Assembly: GCF_014695585.1 (NCBI RefSeq)
Contig: NZ_JACJON010000046.1
Location: forward strand, 1 to 64,000
From: Microcoleus sp. FACHB-831
GTDB lineage: Bacteria > Cyanobacteriota > Cyanobacteriia > Cyanobacteriales > FACHB-T130
DNA length: 64,000 nucleotides
Reading direction: 5' to 3'
Shown here: in pieces, positions 36,620 to 43,463 of the stretch
How positions within the stretch are numbered: position 1 is the stretch's first letter
Layout of the letters: each line of letters opens with the position of its first letter
The notes under the pieces: generated by a model
Database searches by the model: none
Told to the model about the DNA's origin: nothing
Seen by the model: only the letters and a program-made list of their open reading frames with translations
Made by a program: the position numbers and the translations under genes

Positions 36620-37879
36620 CTATTTCTTGTTGTTACCCTTACGGCTACGCATTTTCATCAGAGCTGCTATACCGAACGCTGCACCTGCCACAGTTGCTGG
36701 TTCTGGTACTTCTTGGGGGCTAGCACCATCACGACCTATGGGAGTGCTACCACCATCTATTGGGCTACCACCACCAGAAGTGCTACCACCATCTATTGGG
36801 CTACCACCACCGGAAGTACCACCGCCAGTTGATGTGTCACCACCACCGGAAGTACCACCGCCAGTTGATGTGTCACCACCACCGGAAGTACCGCCACCAG
36901 TTGATGTACCGCCGCCAGTAGATGTGTCGCCACCACCGGAAGTACCGCCGCCAGTAGATGTGTCGCCACCACCGGAAGTACCGCCACCAGTTGATGTGTC
37001 GCCACCACCGGAAGTACCGCCGCCAGTAGATGTGTCGCCACCACCGGAAGTACCGCCACCAGTTGATGTACCGCCGCCAGTAGATGTGTCGCCACCACCG
37101 GAAGTACCGCCACCAGTTGATGTGCCACCGCCAGTAGATGTGTCGCCACCACCGGAAGTACCACCACCAGTTGATGTGCCACCGCCAGAGGACGTACCAC
37201 CACCAGAGGACGTACCACCGCCAGAGGACGTACCACCACCAGAGGAAGTGCCACCACCAGAGGACGTACCGCCACCAGTTGATGTACCACCACTAGAGGG
37301 AACAGTGCTTGTAGCTACAGGGGCAGCAGTTTCTAGTTTGCTACTAAGCTCGCGCTTGCTTCCAGGAAGTCCTACGCTTGTGATCCGGATTCCGAAGCTC
37401 TGCTGCGAAAACATATCCAAAGTCAAAGGCTGAGAAGCGGATACGGTAAATGTGGTCGTTTGAATGTCATCCTTACCTATACCGTTTGTACCAAGTTCGA
37501 CTCCACCATCGAATGAGGCTTGACCGCCATCACCGTTAAGATTAGCATTGCCAACTTTGCTAACATTACCGCTAAAAGAAGTGTTGTTTACATTTGTACC
37601 AGATACTTTGAGGCTGCTTAGAAGCGAGTCGTCTTGAAGGTTGAAGAAGAATCCGCGCAGGTCGGCAGTATTTGGGTTTTGTGCGTCGGTTACAACCTTC
37701 AATGTCACAGTAATCTTACCGCTTCCATTGTTATCGTCCAAGGTTACATTGACCTTAGCAGGAGCGCCTGTGAAGTTAGTAGCATCGAAACTTGTAGTTG
37801 CGGCTTGAACCTGCTGTTGGCTGAAAACTGGAAGTGCAATCCCTGCTATTGCGAAAGCTGCGAATAATGCTGGTTTCAT
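36620..37879 (-). CDS. PEP-CTERM exported protein with Gly/Ser/Thr-rich repeats
   Basis: 419 residues. The signal peptide spans about 1-26, ending VQAA. A folded domain follows (about 27-185: TSFDATNFTGAPAKVNVTLDD... SFGIRITSVGLPGSK). A long tandem stretch then repeats GGGTS, GGGDTSTGGGTS and related units (about 195-370). The C-terminus is EVPEPATVAGAAFGIAALMK followed by RSRK, a PEP-CTERM sorting signal with one membrane helix. Such proteins are processed by exosortase and are linked to biofilm or extracellular matrix. The repeat may carry O-glycans (inference). The same DNA is also open on the plus strand as a Pro-rich frame, which I treat as a shadow. Confidence 0.9.
   Translation of the reverse strand: MKPALFAAFAIAGIALPVFSQQQVQAATTSFDATNFTGAPAKVNVTLDDNNGSGKITVTLKVVTDAQNPNTADLRGFFFNLQDDSLLSSLKVSGTNVNNTSFSGNVSKVGNANLNGDGGQASFDGGVELGTNGIGKDDIQTTTFTVSASQPLTLDMFSQQSFGIRITSVGLPGSKRELSSKLETAAPVATSTVPSSGGTSTGGGTSSGGGTSSGGGTSSGGGTSSGGGTSSGGGTSTGGGTSGGGDTSTGGGTSTGGGTSGGGDTSTGGGTSTGGGTSGGGDTSTGGGTSGGGDTSTGGGTSGGGDTSTGGGTSGGGDTSTGGGTSTGGGTSGGGDTSTGGGTSGGGDTSTGGGTSGGGSPIDGGSTSGGGSPIDGGSTPIGRDGASPQEVPEPATVAGAAFGIAALMKMRSRKGNNKK
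36820..37300 (-). repeat. 36-bp tandem repeats coding for GGGDTSTGGGTS
   Basis: About 13 copies, some shortened, of a 36-bp unit built from CACCACCGGAAGTACC-type sequence. Variation is mainly at third positions and between GGGDTS and GGGTSS units. The array is likely to vary in length between strains. Confidence 0.85.
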
Positions 37880-38694: not shown

Positions 38695-41600
38695 TTATGG
38701 CTGGCAAGTTTTTTTAGCACCCTTAGCGGCATCAGATTCAGGTTTTTTTAAGGTAGGATGGTCGCGCAAGCGATCGCACCCAACTTGCAGCCACGTTTTC
38801 CAATTGCCACCGCGCCACAACCTTAAAGTCTTGTCGCCGCTGCCGCTAGCAATATACTGTCCATCTGGACTAAAAGCGATCGCAAAGACGGCATCCTCAT
38901 GTCCCCGGAAAGGTTGCCCGATAGGTTCCCCCTTAAGATTCCACAACCTTAAAGTTTTGTCGCCGCTACCACTAACAATATATTGACCATCAGGACTAAA
39001 ACCCACCGAAGTCACAGCATAATCGTGCCCTCGGAAAGGTTCGCCAATCAGCTTGCCCGCTTTGTCCCACAACCTGATCGTCTTGTCTCTGCTGCCGCTA
39101 ACAATATACTGACCATCGGGACTAAAAGCGATCGCAAAGACGGCATCCTGATGTCCCCGTAACGGTTGACCAATCGGTTCGCCCTTAAGGTTCCAAAACC
39201 GCACTGTTCCGTCCCAACTCCCGCTGGCAATCGTCTGCCCGTCTGCACTAAAGGCAATCGAACTAACCACAGCCTCATGCCCCCTCAAAGGTTCGCCAAC
39301 TGCTTGCCCCTGCTTGTTCCAAAGCCGCAGAGTCTTATCAGCGCTGCCACTGGCAATATACTGGCCATCTCGACTAACTGCAATCGACAAAACAGCATCC
39401 TCATGTCCCGTCAAAGGTTGACCAATAGGTTCGCCCTTAATGTTCCACAATCGCACAGTGCGATCGCCACCGCCGCTGACAATATATTGACCGTCCGGAC
39501 TAAACGCAACAGAAGTGAAACCACCTTGCTGCCCTTGGAATGGCTGACCAATAGGTTCGCCCTTAACGTTCCACAACCGCAAGGTATTGTCATCGCTGGC
39601 ACTGATGATGTACTGACCATCGGGGCTAAAAGCGATGGAACTAACAGCTTGTAGATGTCCTTGGAATGGCTTGCCAGCATTGTCCCCAACGTCCCACAAC
39701 CGCACCGTAGTGTCATCGCTGCCAGTGGCAATGTACTCCCCAGTGGGACTAAAAGCGACAGATCTGACAGTATTCTCATGTCCCCGAAAGGTTAAACCAA
39801 GCGGCTTGCCCGACTTGTCCCACAACCGCAAAGTATTGTCAGCGCTAGCACTGACGATGTACTCGCCATTAGGACTAAAAGCGACAGACAACACAACCTG
39901 ATCGTGGCCTCCAAAAGGTTGGCCAATCGGCTGCCCCCCAATGCCCCAAACCCGCAGCGTCTGATCATAACTACCGCTGACAATGGATTGTCCGTTTGGA
40001 CTAAAAGCAATGGAACTCACAGCATTTTCGTGTCCGACGAATGGTTGACCAATCGGCTTGCCTGTAATTTCCCACAACCGCACTGTTTTATCCTTACCGC
40101 CGCTGACAACATAGCGACCGTCGGGACTAAAGGCGACAGCAAAAACATCACCTTGATGTCCCCGGAACGGTTGGCCAACGGTTTGACCTTTGAGATTCCA
40201 CAGCCGCAAAGTCGAGTCGGTACTTCCAGAAACGATGTACTGTCCGTTGGGGCTAAAAGCGACAGAACTTACAGCACCTTGATGTCCCTGGAACGGTTGG
40301 CCTATAAGTTGACCGTTGAGGTTCCACAACTTTAAGGTTCCATCCGCGCTGGCCCCCGCAATATAATTACCATTTGGACTAAAGGCGATCGCGCTAGCAG
40401 GACTTTCAACTGCAAACGGTTGACCTATCGGTTCTCCTTTTATATTCCACAAACGTACCGTCTTGTCTTTGCTAGCTGCTGCAATGTACTGTCCGTCAGG
40501 ACTAAAGGCGACAGAATTGACGTTATCTTCATGTCCTTGAAAAATATTTCGCTCGGTTGCTACTTGTACTGCGCTTAACAAGCTAGACTCAACAGGAGGC
40601 AAGACGCGCCCCAATTTTGCCCTGCTCTGACCCAAAAGCTGCATCGCACTCAACAATCCATCTACAGGCTGAGCAGCTACGGAATTTTGCACCACCACCG
40701 CCCGTTCGCGCAGCGTTGCGATCGCCGCATCCCGTTCAGCTTTTCGCCACAAGACCGCAAAAACCATAGCTATTACAGCTACCAACCCCAGCAAACCCGC
40801 ACCAATAGCAAGACGCGATCGCTGGTTATTTCGTCTCTTGTTGATGCTTTTCTCGACAAATTCATGGCTCAAGCTTGATAGCGGTACGCTCTGGGCATAA
40901 AGTTTAAGGAAATTCTCCGCTTCAGCTAATTTCAGTCCTTGCAACAGATAATCTCCCGCCTTGCCCTTTTCTTGCCACTCTTGGGCACCAGCCTCAATCA
41001 TCCGCTTTTGTCTTAGAGCATCCCTCGTCTCGCTCAACCATTCGCGCAAAAGCGGCCAATGGCGTATCAAAGCTTCGTGGGCAACATCTACGACTGCCAA
41101 CTTACCCGATTCCACGCCCTTCTCTATCAAAGTACTTGTCACCAATAACTTGGCATCGGCTAAGTTTTGAATTACCCGATCCACAATTGCTTCATCTTGC
41201 TGTTTGGTGACTAAATCCGGTTGTCGTACCTGTCTGCGAGTATCTTCCGTTCCTTCACCCAGTTGAGTAAGTTCTAGAAAAATTCGCCTTGTTGCTTGTT
41301 GTTCTTCTGGCGAAAACGATTCATAAACTTCCGTTGCTCGTTTTTGCAACGTTCCCCTTACCCCACCGAGTTGAGTATAGGCGCTCAACGTCAATCGATT
41401 CACCGTCCGTCGCTGCCACAGTTCGGTTAAGGTGTACTGCAAGAGGGGCAAGCTACCAGGAGAGCCGTCTACATCTGCGATCATCTGGGTGACTAGCTCG
41501 CGCTCGACTTCTAAGCCTACTTGTTTGGCAGGTTCTACAATCGCTTGCTCTAATTCTTCAGCAGTCATGGGCGTGACTGTTACTAGATGCTGTTGGATTA

Positions 41601-42975
41601 AATTAGCTAATCCGGCATACTGTTTCTCGGCACATTTGCCAAAGAAATCTGCACGCATCGTCATCACTATAGTGAGTTTTGAGTTCTTAGCTTCGTTTTT
41701 TGAGTTGTCAGTTGTTCCCTCAACTACGCCCAGCAAACATTCAAAAAATTGCTGTCTTTCCTTCTCGTCGTGGCAAAGGGTAAAAGCTTCTTCCAACTGA
41801 TCTACTAGCAGCACTACGCGAGGAGCAGCGATCGCTGCTATTAATTGCTTTAACCCCTCAGCACCTGCATTAATAAGTTCTTTGGCTTTGACTAGCTGGG
41901 AAGCTCTTTCAACTCCTTGAAGTTGCGGGTCTACAAATGCCCCAGCTAAATTTTCTAGCGGATGCTCGCCTGGTCTGAAAATATAAATTGGCCAAGTGTC
42001 GCTACCACTCAAACGCTGACCTAATTTAAGTTGATACAATAACCCTGCTCTGACTACAGAAGATTTGCCACTCCCTGAAGCTCCCAAGACGGTTAGGAAG
42101 TTCCCCTGACGCATTTGCTCTAAAAGTTGGTCTGTTAGCGTCGTCCGTCCGTGAAAATATTTAGGGTCTTCTTCGTTGCAGTCAAAATAAGATAAACCTT
42201 TGTAAGGACAGGTACCTCCTATAACTGCACCTGTCATAGACTCTTCTTCTTTTTTGCCCGTGAGGATAATTTGTCCGCCTGAGTTGGCAAAAACGGGTCG
42301 TTGGGTGGCAGTTTTTAGTGCTGTGTTTAGGTAATCAACGAGAGTATAGTTGGTTACTATTCTTTCCGGATGCTGTAATGGGTCAAGTCCTTGGACTAAG
42401 GCAGAGGTAAACACACCGCGATCGCCTGTAACATCTTCATAAGCAACCTCAAATTCGCGACTTGCAGCAATGAAACAGCGATCGCGCCCTTTGCCTCTAT
42501 CCCCCGGATCTGCATCGTCAAAGTTAAGTAATTCTCCACTATGGCAGCAATCTAACCATATAATTTGCTGTCGAATAGGGCTTTCTTGAAGTAAGCGCCG
42601 CAACCACTGCATCGACAGACCATAAAGCCCTAAATCTGGATTGACATCGCTAGTAGCAAGAAAGCCTTCTTGAACTCTACCTTTGACTTTACGCAACCCA
42701 TGCCCGGAAAAATACAATAGTGCCGTATCGGGTATATGTTTTCCCTCTGGCGTAAATAATTGTACAAGTGCTTCTTCTAGTTCATCGAGGCTGATTTTAG
42801 TTTTTTGACCGACGCGCACCTCACCGTCTTTGACAGCTTCGGGTAGGCGTCGAACTCTAAAGTCGCCCATGTCTGTAAGCATTTGGGCTACAGCTTCCGC
42901 ATCCTGTGCGGGCGCATTCAAACGACTTAAGCGCTCGTATGTATTAATTCCTACCACTAAGGCATCCCGGCTCAT
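38695..42975 (-). CDS. Caspase-nSTAND1-WD40 protein
   Basis: 1426 residues. Residues 1-240 are a caspase-like (metacaspase/orthocaspase) protease with catalytic His92 in YFSGHG and Cys144 in LDCCHSGELL. Residues about 256-700 are an nSTAND1-type NTPase: CPYKGLSYFD, Walker A GASGSGKS (298-305) and Walker B VVLLVDQLEEAFT. A membrane-like helix (RLAIGAGLLGLVAVIAMVFAVLWR, about 725-748) follows. The C-terminal 580 residues are 14 WD40 repeats, that is two seven-bladed propellers, highly alike (GQPFRGHEDAVFAIAFSPDG type). A role as a ligand-triggered protease in stress response or immunity is inference from this architecture. It is divergent from a Trypco1-like gene 83 bp away. Confidence 0.95.
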   Translation of the reverse strand: MSRDALVVGINTYERLSRLNAPAQDAEAVAQMLTDMGDFRVRRLPEAVKDGEVRVGQKTKISLDELEEALVQLFTPEGKHIPDTALLYFSGHGLRKVKGRVQEGFLATSDVNPDLGLYGLSMQWLRRLLQESPIRQQIIWLDCCHSGELLNFDDADPGDRGKGRDRCFIAASREFEVAYEDVTGDRGVFTSALVQGLDPLQHPERIVTNYTLVDYLNTALKTATQRPVFANSGGQIILTGKKEEESMTGAVIGGTCPYKGLSYFDCNEEDPKYFHGRTTLTDQLLEQMRQGNFLTVLGASGSGKSSVVRAGLLYQLKLGQRLSGSDTWPIYIFRPGEHPLENLAGAFVDPQLQGVERASQLVKAKELINAGAEGLKQLIAAIAAPRVVLLVDQLEEAFTLCHDEKERQQFFECLLGVVEGTTDNSKNEAKNSKLTIVMTMRADFFGKCAEKQYAGLANLIQQHLVTVTPMTAEELEQAIVEPAKQVGLEVERELVTQMIADVDGSPGSLPLLQYTLTELWQRRTVNRLTLSAYTQLGGVRGTLQKRATEVYESFSPEEQQATRRIFLELTQLGEGTEDTRRQVRQPDLVTKQQDEAIVDRVIQNLADAKLLVTSTLIEKGVESGKLAVVDVAHEALIRHWPLLREWLSETRDALRQKRMIEAGAQEWQEKGKAGDYLLQGLKLAEAENFLKLYAQSVPLSSLSHEFVEKSINKRRNNQRSRLAIGAGLLGLVAVIAMVFAVLWRKAERDAAIATLRERAVVVQNSVAAQPVDGLLSAMQLLGQSRAKLGRVLPPVESSLLSAVQVATERNIFQGHEDNVNSVAFSPDGQYIAAASKDKTVRLWNIKGEPIGQPFAVESPASAIAFSPNGNYIAGASADGTLKLWNLNGQLIGQPFQGHQGAVSSVAFSPNGQYIVSGSTDSTLRLWNLKGQTVGQPFRGHQGDVFAVAFSPDGRYVVSGGKDKTVRLWEITGKPIGQPFVGHENAVSSIAFSPNGQSIVSGSYDQTLRVWGIGGQPIGQPFGGHDQVVLSVAFSPNGEYIVSASADNTLRLWDKSGKPLGLTFRGHENTVRSVAFSPTGEYIATGSDDTTVRLWDVGDNAGKPFQGHLQAVSSIAFSPDGQYIISASDDNTLRLWNVKGEPIGQPFQGQQGGFTSVAFSPDGQYIVSGGGDRTVRLWNIKGEPIGQPLTGHEDAVLSIAVSRDGQYIASGSADKTLRLWNKQGQAVGEPLRGHEAVVSSIAFSADGQTIASGSWDGTVRFWNLKGEPIGQPLRGHQDAVFAIAFSPDGQYIVSGSRDKTIRLWDKAGKLIGEPFRGHDYAVTSVGFSPDGQYIVSGSGDKTLRLWNLKGEPIGQPFRGHEDAVFAIAFSPDGQYIASGSGDKTLRLWRGGNWKTWLQVGCDRLRDHPTLKKPESDAAKGAKKTCQP

Positions 42976-43058
42976 ACCTGAATCATTCCTCTAATACGAT
43001 TTACCTGCTACTATAAGCTGGGCAACAAGGTATTCTCCAGCAAAAAAACAATTTGATT

Positions 43059-43463
43059 ATGGATAAACTGACACCTATCGAGCTTGAAGATGGAACGATT
43101 ATATATATTGAAGCGACACAGGATGTAGATACTTCCAATGTCACTTCTAATAACGATGAAGAGGAGGAAGTAGGACGTAGGACAAGAGGAGCAGGTAGGA
43201 GTGTATCGGACAGCCAAGCTCAAGCTCTACAAAATTTTAAGGCAATTGAAGGAACGATTCGTACTTATACGACTTATACTCTAAATGCGTTTAAGCAAGT
43301 AACTACAGCAAATATAACCAAAGTAACTTTGGAGTTTGGCCTGAAAGTTGGCGGAAGCGTGGGTATTCCCTACATTACCCAAGGTACTGCTGAGAGCAAT
43401 TTAAAAATAACAGTAGAGTGTGAGTTTGCTAAGTCAACTAAAGTCACGTCTTCGATTGAATAG
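43059..43463 (+). CDS. Trypco1/CU044_2847-like small protein
   Basis: 134 residues. It matches the pattern of the CU044_2847 (trypsin-co-occurring, Trypco1) family: MDKLTPIELEDGTIIYIEA at the start, an acidic linker (NNDEEEEVGRRTRGAGR), and a strand-rich C-terminal part containing NITKVTLEFGLKVGGSVGIPYI and SNLKITVECEF. That family was described near proteases and STAND NTPases in predicted conflict systems. The ATG at 43059 has only a weak RBS; an in-frame TTG lies two codons upstream. Its neighbour, facing away across 83 bp, is the caspase-nSTAND1-WD40 gene. It may be a regulator or target of it (inference). Confidence 0.75.
   Translation: MDKLTPIELEDGTIIYIEATQDVDTSNVTSNNDEEEEVGRRTRGAGRSVSDSQAQALQNFKAIEGTIRTYTTYTLNAFKQVTTANITKVTLEFGLKVGGSVGIPYITQGTAESNLKITVECEFAKSTKVTSSIE

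What the first reader, a model, noticed from the sequence alone, without database searches (positions are those of the whole stretch)
38695..43463. Caspase-nSTAND1-double WD40 protein divergent from a Trypco1-like gene
One chain combines an apparently intact caspase-like protease (H92, C144), an nSTAND1 NTPase with Walker A and B, a membrane helix and exactly 14 WD40 blades (two seven-bladed propellers). 83 bp away, facing the other way, is a small protein with the CU044_2847/Trypco1 start. That family has been described alongside proteases and STAND ATPases in predicted prokaryotic conflict systems. A two-gene unit (sensor-protease plus small partner) with a shared promoter is a testable new configuration. 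The near-identical blades suggest recent repeat turnover, as expected for a recognition surface.
Basis: partly seen in the sequence, partly recalled or inferred. Interest (0 to 1): 0.72.

Follow-up and report, generated by a model that had tools for sequence, protein, structure and literature searches.

The report
Cyanobacterial caspase sensor with small partner
This is a two-gene unit, found in many cyanobacteria, that joins a large caspase-type protease carrying a ring-shaped sensor to a small partner gene facing the other way; it is probably a self-destruct or defence switch, and its small partner was named for sitting beside a different kind of protease.

Summary
The anatomy is confirmed: an intact C14 caspase (H92/C144), nSTAND1, one predicted membrane helix and 14 WD40 blades, with a Trypco1/CU044_2847 gene 83 bp away, divergent. 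The pair is not local. A caspase-domain profile searched over 386 cyanobacterial genomes gave 62 hits, 26 with Trypco1 divergent beside them, in 17 genus groups. In a tree of 132 distinct Trypco1 domains, one half holds 47 tandem trypsins of 63 (the published arrangement); the other, with the window, 46 divergent caspases of 69 and no tandem trypsin. Six of seven plasmid copies viewed show the divergent pair. The part behind the caspase varies: WD40, pentapeptide repeats, CHASE2, NB-ARC. Two details fail: the window's blades are not near-identical (mean 56% protein, 63% DNA identity), though some relatives' nearly are; and a shared promoter was not shown. Best reading: an NLR-like, membrane-tethered caspase with its own subfamily of small partner, its regulator or its substrate. 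In the window's clade every paired partner (22 of 22) carries a Lys/Arg-Gly in its linker. A new variant of the EACC-caspase/Trypco-trypsin kind; function unproven.

The parts
42256..42975 (-). N-terminal caspase (C14) domain, aa 1-240, dyad H92/C144, acidic D142 two residues before the Cys
40957..42207 (-). nSTAND1 NTPase, aa 257-673, Walker A GASGSGKSS at 298, Walker B-like VVLLVDQLEEAF at 387
40747..40812 (-). predicted membrane helix, aa 722-743
   Evidence: hydropathy; sequence
38785..40542 (-). 14 WD40 blades, aa 812-1397, best read as two seven-bladed propellers
42976..43058 (.). 83-bp divergent intergenic region; promoter not demonstrated
43059..43463 (+). 134-aa Trypco1/CU044_2847 partner, caspase-associated half of the family tree
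43185..43190 (+). R43-G44 of the partner: Lys/Arg-Gly in the linker, found in 22 of 22 caspase-paired members of the window's clade; candidate cleavage site (inference)

Best explanation
It is a two-gene, NLR-like protease module. Shown: a chain of caspase, nSTAND1, predicted membrane helix and WD40 blades; a divergently placed Trypco1-family partner; recurrence of this pair in many cyanobacteria and on plasmids; an intact catalytic dyad in every paired caspase examined; partner and caspase that diverge in step; exchangeable parts behind the caspase. Inferred: the propellers (or the part that replaces them) sense a cue; binding lets nSTAND1 exchange nucleotide and oligomerise like an apoptosome; the clustered caspases become active and cut after Lys or Arg. 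The partner is the caspase's dedicated regulator or first substrate: it either holds the caspase in check or, when cut at the Lys/Arg-Gly between its N-terminal hairpin and its helix, releases the signal that leads to growth arrest or death. I rate module and pairing as near certain, a conflict or cell-death role as likely, and the substrate/regulator role of the partner as one in three to one in two.
For: Caspase-profile search: 62 hits in 386 genomes, 26 with Trypco1 divergent within 1 kb. Trypco1-first: 15 of 22 close relatives have the divergent caspase. Of 132 distinct Trypco1 domains the caspase-type half has 46 of 69 with a divergent caspase and 0 with a tandem trypsin; the other half 47 of 63 with tandem trypsin and 1 with a caspase, 768 bp off (Fisher 5e-17, not corrected for kinship; trypsin by a local profile). 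Of 54 Trypco1 loci with a caspase anywhere in the fetched stretch, 48 have it divergent within 800 bp (42 within 189 bp), the other 6 lie 4.9 kb or more away (one of the 48 is a duplicate contig, one is the 768-bp case). His/Cys dyad intact in 48 of 48 paired and 3 of 6 unpaired caspases. Six of seven CU044_2847 genes in five plasmid stretches have a divergent caspase with intact dyad motifs; three of the five plasmids are typed conjugative. Distance correlation of caspase and partner 0.877 in 46 pairs; shuffles within clades reach at most 0.621. Lys/Arg-Gly in the partner's linker in 22 of 22 of the window's clade against 3.8 expected by shuffling; orthocaspases cleave after positively charged residues (PMC6426788, abstract passage). 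Apaf-1 is among the best structural matches of the propeller region.
Against: 23 of 69 caspase-type Trypco1 genes have no caspase beside them; 3 lie at or near contig ends (L049, L057, L100) and 2 face truncated remnants (L048, L095), the other 18 are unexplained. In the second clade Lys/Arg-Gly is hardly enriched (9 of 24 against 5.7 expected), and L055 and L082 have it without a caspase in the fetched stretch. The search profile was built from Trypco1-paired caspases, so it is blind to the neighbour but not to that kinship, and the tool scored at most 7 candidates per genome. Correlated distances also follow from shared descent. No expression, binding or cleavage data exist here; the partner's fold could not be predicted (pLDDT 49.6) and has no PDB relative by sequence. 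The window's own surroundings look like housekeeping genes (rpoB/C1/C2, HtrA, named by reading the sequence), not a defence island.
Confidence: 0.6

Rival explanations
1. The partner is a brake (inhibitor or folding partner) of the caspase, like an antidote; its loss or displacement triggers the protease. The Lys/Arg-Gly is then part of a substrate-like inhibitory loop, not a cut that matters.
For: The divergent layout lets the two genes be set to different levels (inference). Partner and caspase diverge in step. Trypco1 persists where the facing caspase is truncated (L048, L095), so the partner seems harmless alone (inference).
Against: Caspases of a nearby clade have no Trypco1 in the stretches fetched, and have another small divergent gene or none found, so a Trypco1 brake is not required by the caspase as such.
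Confidence: 0.3
2. The partner is an adaptor that recruits a separate effector or docks the complex, as the published EAD/EACC components are thought to do; it is neither substrate nor inhibitor.
For: Trypco1 is called an adapter domain in PMC10907252 (passages). Trypco1 also sits beside trypsins in the same and other genomes, which suggests a generic link to peptidases.
Against: No fusion of caspase-type Trypco1 to an effector was seen; these ORFs are all under 200 aa. No third gene stood out in the nearest-neighbour listing, read by eye only.
Confidence: 0.25
3. Ordinary neighbourhood: a caspase-STAND signalling protein of unknown, perhaps developmental, role that happens to share a regulatory region with a small gene; no physical or functional link.
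For: Caspase-NACHT-WD40 proteins were already described as widely distributed (PMC3501461, passages). The window lies among apparent housekeeping genes.
Against: Pairing persists across 17 genus groups in a search by caspase and on plasmids; the partner's half of the tree tracks protease type.
Confidence: 0.1

Closest known systems
Trypco1 (trypsin-co-occurring domain 1) with trypsin-like peptidases, incl. VMAP ternary systems (PMC7159879, passages)
   Same: Small protein of the same Pfam/NCBIfam family beside a peptidase gene; nSTAND1 and WD40 also occur with the trypsin type (own genome, L063).
   Different: Caspase in place of trypsin; divergent instead of tandem; the other half of the Trypco1 tree. 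That text pairs caspases with an alpha/beta-hydrolase gene.
EACC1-caspase two-gene system ('System 4', PMC7159879) and EACC2-caspase (PMC8195603, passages)
   Same: Constant caspase with a variable C-terminal part and a constant component (for EACC1 a small partner gene); link to the membrane.
   Different: The partner is Trypco1, not EACC1; EACC1 is described as the 5' gene, mainly in actinobacteria. EACC1 model: 0 of 386 cyanobacterial genomes, but no positive control rang. The caspase scores under the EACC1-type cut-off (101 against 140).
Caspase-NACHT/STAND-WD40 proteins of cyanobacteria (PMC3501461, passages)
   Same: Same order of domains; pentapeptide and CHASE2 variants are mentioned there too.
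   Different: The passages read do not mention a small divergent partner; the whole text was not read.
Apaf-1 apoptosome and fungal HNWD/NWD receptors
   Same: STAND NTPase with WD40 propellers that controls a death effector; in some relatives near-identical blades that vary at a few positions (PMC4986451, passages).
   Different: The caspase is in the same chain; a membrane helix; a dedicated small partner; the window's own blades are diverged.

Membership tests
Trypco1 / CU044_2847 | Profile match over curated cut-off | tested here: met
   PF19493 80.2 bits (24.6); NF041216 91.2 bits (23)
Trypco1 / CU044_2847 | Co-occurs with a trypsin-like peptidase (the source of the name) | tested here: not met
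   Neighbour is a caspase; in the window's half of the tree 0 of 69 have a tandem trypsin by a local profile
EACC1-caspase system | Small EACC1 partner gene | tested here: not met
   Partner matches Trypco1 only; EACC1 0 of 386 genomes, no positive control
EACC1-caspase system | EACC1-associated caspase subfamily NF047832 | tested here: not met
   101.2 bits, cut-off 140
EACC1-caspase system | Constant caspase with variable C-terminal parts | tested here: met
   WD40, pentapeptide, CHASE2, NB-ARC (8 proteins); 10 of 46 without nSTAND1 by local profile
VMAP ternary system | MoxR, vWA and VMAP-C genes alongside | tested here: not met
   Next genes are PhyH and a metal-sensitive repressor by Pfam; further ones (HtrA, rpo genes, rubrerythrin-like) only by reading the sequence
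C14 caspase / orthocaspase | His-Cys dyad and C14 profile | tested here: met
   H92, C144; PF00656 60.6 bits over 21.4
C14 caspase / orthocaspase | Cleavage after Lys/Arg | not testable with these tools
   Needs an assay; D142 two before the Cys is kept in 54 of 54; that this residue lines the S1 pocket of metacaspases is recalled
STAND NTPase / NLR-like | nSTAND1 profile, Walker A and B, superstructure repeats | tested here: met
STAND NTPase / NLR-like | Ligand-triggered oligomerisation and immunity | not testable with these tools
   Needs experiments

The most novel reading that the evidence does not exclude
The small partner is the executor. The sensor-activated caspase cuts the Trypco1 protein at its Lys/Arg-Gly linker, and the freed helix-and-strand part carries out the death step, so this is a bacterial two-gene 'inflammasome plus cleaved effector'. 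The rule would be general: each peptidase type (caspase, trypsin) keeps its own Trypco1 subfamily, and a neighbouring caspase clade uses an unrelated small divergent gene instead (profiles do not match).
Probability: 0.2. Interest if true: 0.78.

Novelty: new variant of a known kind. Interest (0 to 1): 0.52.

Why it matters
Caspase-STAND-WD40 proteins have been linked to possible programmed cell death in cyanobacteria, but what they act on is not known to me. A partner kept beside the protease in 17 genus groups and on plasmids, some of them conjugative, is the most direct candidate, and one cleavage assay can test it. The split of Trypco1 into trypsin-linked and caspase-linked halves also widens the meaning of the domain's name: it may be a general partner of conflict-system peptidases.

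Tried and rejected
Near-identical blades in the window protein: rejected; 81-88% only in L039, L042, L044, and nearly uniform in L204. EACC1 as the partner: no hit in 386 genomes, but no control rang either. Fold of the partner: AlphaFold with 21 rows was too poor to search; PDB sequence searches found nothing for the partner profile up to E 1 or the caspase profile up to E 0.001. Partner switching proven by the caspase tree: not claimed, since the test does not reject Trypco1-linked caspases as one clade (p 0.43; L061, L052 and eight far rows were left out of that test). Homology of the other small divergent family to Trypco1: not supported. Shared promoter: consensus scan no better than shuffles; a TTCCG-like element is visible by eye in several relatives' gaps but not in the window's, not pursued. 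Phages: no match of the window's partner by tblastn at E 1e-3. Supplementary data of PMC7159879 could not be read here, so a caspase-Trypco1 pair listed there cannot be excluded; searches of the open library for Trypco1, Trypco/CU044_2847 and EACC1 and a combined search showed no text on it in the passages that I then read.

Full report
What is there. The minus-strand ORF 38695-42975 encodes 1426 aa: an intact C14 caspase (H92, C144), nSTAND1, one predicted membrane helix and 14 WD40 blades of 41-42 aa spacing. The model of the propeller region (mean pLDDT 79, four-row alignment) best matches PDB 2ymu, titled a highly repetitive propeller structure, with Apaf-1 at rank 4. The plus-strand ORF from ATG 43059, 83 bp away, encodes 134 aa and passes the cut-offs of Pfam Trypco1 and NCBIfam CU044_2847. 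The start is placed at that ATG because the N-terminus aligns with relatives.

How far the pair extends. A scan with the 134-aa protein found 22 relatives in named cyanobacterial records, the nearest in Argonema antarcticum (72% identity); 15 of 22 have a caspase gene divergent beside them, two of the other seven begin at a contig end and one faces a truncated remnant of a caspase start. A Trypco1 survey of 386 cyanobacterial genomes found it in 63. I then searched the same 386 genomes with a profile of the caspase domain: 62 hits at E up to 1e-30, of which 26 have Trypco1 divergent within 1 kb, in 23 genomes of 17 genus groups. Two limits: the profile was built from 16 Trypco1-paired caspases, and the tool scored at most seven candidates per genome. 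The 26 fall in two score bands (442-336 and 155-116 bits); the 36 without Trypco1 lie mostly between them (331-163, and two near 130). Those 36 show no Trypco1 in the 34 stretches fetched, 3.8 to 15.6 kb long, some cut by contig ends. On plasmids, five records match; in the five stretches viewed, six of seven annotated CU044_2847 genes have a divergent caspase with intact dyad motifs, and the seventh has an AraC-family gene upstream.

Two halves of Trypco1. A quick maximum-likelihood tree of 132 distinct domains splits with SH-aLRT 98 into 63 and 69 (midpoint root, few columns, many open forks). The half of 63 holds 47 tandem trypsins (by a local profile), 15 with neither and one with a caspase, L061, 768 bp off; that caspase groups with unpaired ones in the caspase tree. 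The half of 69, with the window, holds 46 divergent caspases, no tandem trypsin and 23 with neither. Fisher's p of 5e-17 ignores kinship. The window's own genome has one of each kind: the second copy, on contig 17, lies in tandem before a 1388-aa protein with trypsin, nSTAND1 and WD40 domains. Thus a similar tail occurs with either protease, and the partner's subfamily and orientation follow the protease.

Constant and variable parts. Of 46 distinct paired caspases listed, 36 have nSTAND1 and 21 of these also WD40 by local profile; 10 have no nSTAND1 (some ORFs are cut or short). Pfam shows pentapeptide repeats (L043, L045, L050), CHASE2 (L046) and NB-ARC (L047) in place of WD40 (eight proteins scanned). 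Of 29 uncut nSTAND1 members over 750 aa, 21 have a predicted membrane helix. The His-Cys dyad is intact in 48 of 48 paired caspases; three of six unpaired ones have lost it. In the clearest exchange, L046 against L044, the caspase is 92% identical and the part behind residue 800 only 21%; in five other comparisons the caspases share 73-98% and the C-terminal parts 27-89%.

The partner's linker. In the 21-row alignment the residue before invariant G44 is Lys or Arg in 18 of 21, read from the alignment; the three others, from Crocosphaera, have Leu there and a Lys-Gly a few residues on. Over caspase-paired members of the window's clade Lys/Arg-Gly occurs in 22 of 22 (3.8 expected by shuffling the same segment), in the second clade in 9 of 24 (5.7 expected). 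Kinship inflates the first number. Orthocaspases cut after positively charged residues (PMC6426788, abstract passage), which makes this a candidate cut site, no more. L055 and L082, without a caspase in view, have the motif too.

Co-divergence. Pairwise distances of caspase and partner correlate at 0.877 over 46 pairs; free shuffles reach 0.189 and shuffles within the two clades 0.621. Descent as a unit explains this as well as contact does.

The blades. In the window, blades share 56% of residues and 63% of bases on average, so no recent amplification is visible. In L039, L042 and L044 blades average 81-88% identity. In L204 (Nostoc plasmid) 15 blades differ by 5.5 amino-acid-changing and 1.9 silent codons per pair, with four or more residues only at blade positions 5, 6, 8 and 24 (counted from 0); the same four stand out in L044, and with one more in L039. 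In the window they are four among sixteen such positions, so the pattern is blurred there. Fungal NWD receptors are reported to be under diversifying selection at four positions per blade (PMC4986451, passages); I did not map those positions onto these. Rapid turnover of such cyanobacterial propellers is already published (PMC9218822, passages).

Comparison. In the passages of PMC7159879 that I read, Trypco1 goes with trypsins, caspases with an alpha/beta-hydrolase or with EACC1; PMC8195603 adds EACC2 (passages); [quoted passage not shown] Caspase-NACHT-WD40 is old knowledge (PMC3501461, passages). I found no text on a conserved divergent caspase-Trypco1 unit in the open library; supplements and most subscription papers could not be searched.

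A neighbouring clade. Among the 36 caspase genes of this kind without Trypco1, 14 have within 800 bp another divergent gene of an unnamed family. It is mostly a small protein of 150-170 aa, in three cases part of a longer ORF. My profile of it also caught CHAT-only ORFs in L177 and L179, which are not counted. Five small members gave no Pfam match and five no NCBIfam match. It is often followed by a gene of 437-544 aa, four of which gave no Pfam match over cut-off. Its profile does not match Trypco1. Whether one partner replaced the other is open, since the caspase tree does not reject a single Trypco1-linked clade.

Verdict. Real, conserved and more general than the finding said; mechanism inferred; a new variant of a known kind of predicted conflict system.

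Noticed in passing
L170:6264-8356, L176:3729-5977, L189:2959-4943, L190:2805-4754, L192:3757-5783, L196:3764-5772, L197:3181-4978: A second small (150-170 aa) divergent partner family, without Pfam or NCBIfam match in those tested, next to caspase-STAND genes and followed by a 437-544 aa gene; in L183 it is the start of a protein with a CHAT domain, and L186 and L194 hold long ORFs that match it.
   Followed up: partly
L063:7971-12456 (own genome, contig 17): Trypco1 in tandem with a trypsin-nSTAND1-WD40 protein: the trypsin counterpart of the window's caspase protein in the same genome.
   Followed up: partly
L204:1336-5865: Nostoc plasmid caspase-STAND protein with 15 nearly uniform blades that vary mainly at four positions per blade, with more amino-acid-changing than silent differences.
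   Followed up: partly
L111:3483-8161; similar layout in L126, L136, L149, L155: A Trypco1 clade preceded by a ~280 aa gene and a ~1075 aa gene, which is a SNF2 helicase in L111 (Pfam run only for L111).
   Followed up: no
L104:14081-16000, L122:1071-2951, L123:730-2748: Pseudo-caspases with Tyr for the catalytic His and Asn for the Cys, about 5-6 kb from a Trypco1 gene; in L104 and L122 that gene is in tandem with a trypsin-motif gene.
   Followed up: no
L048:6706-6864, L095:7513-7602: Truncated remnants of the caspase N-terminus facing an open Trypco1 gene: pairs in decay that kept the partner.
   Followed up: partly
window 36620-37879: Protein with a long Gly-Gly-Gly-Thr-Ser repeat and a PEP-CTERM-like end, beside the finding (label from recall).
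   Followed up: no
L207:12210-12342: A further CU044_2847 gene on an Acaryochloris plasmid with an AraC-family gene, not an annotated caspase, upstream.
   Followed up: no
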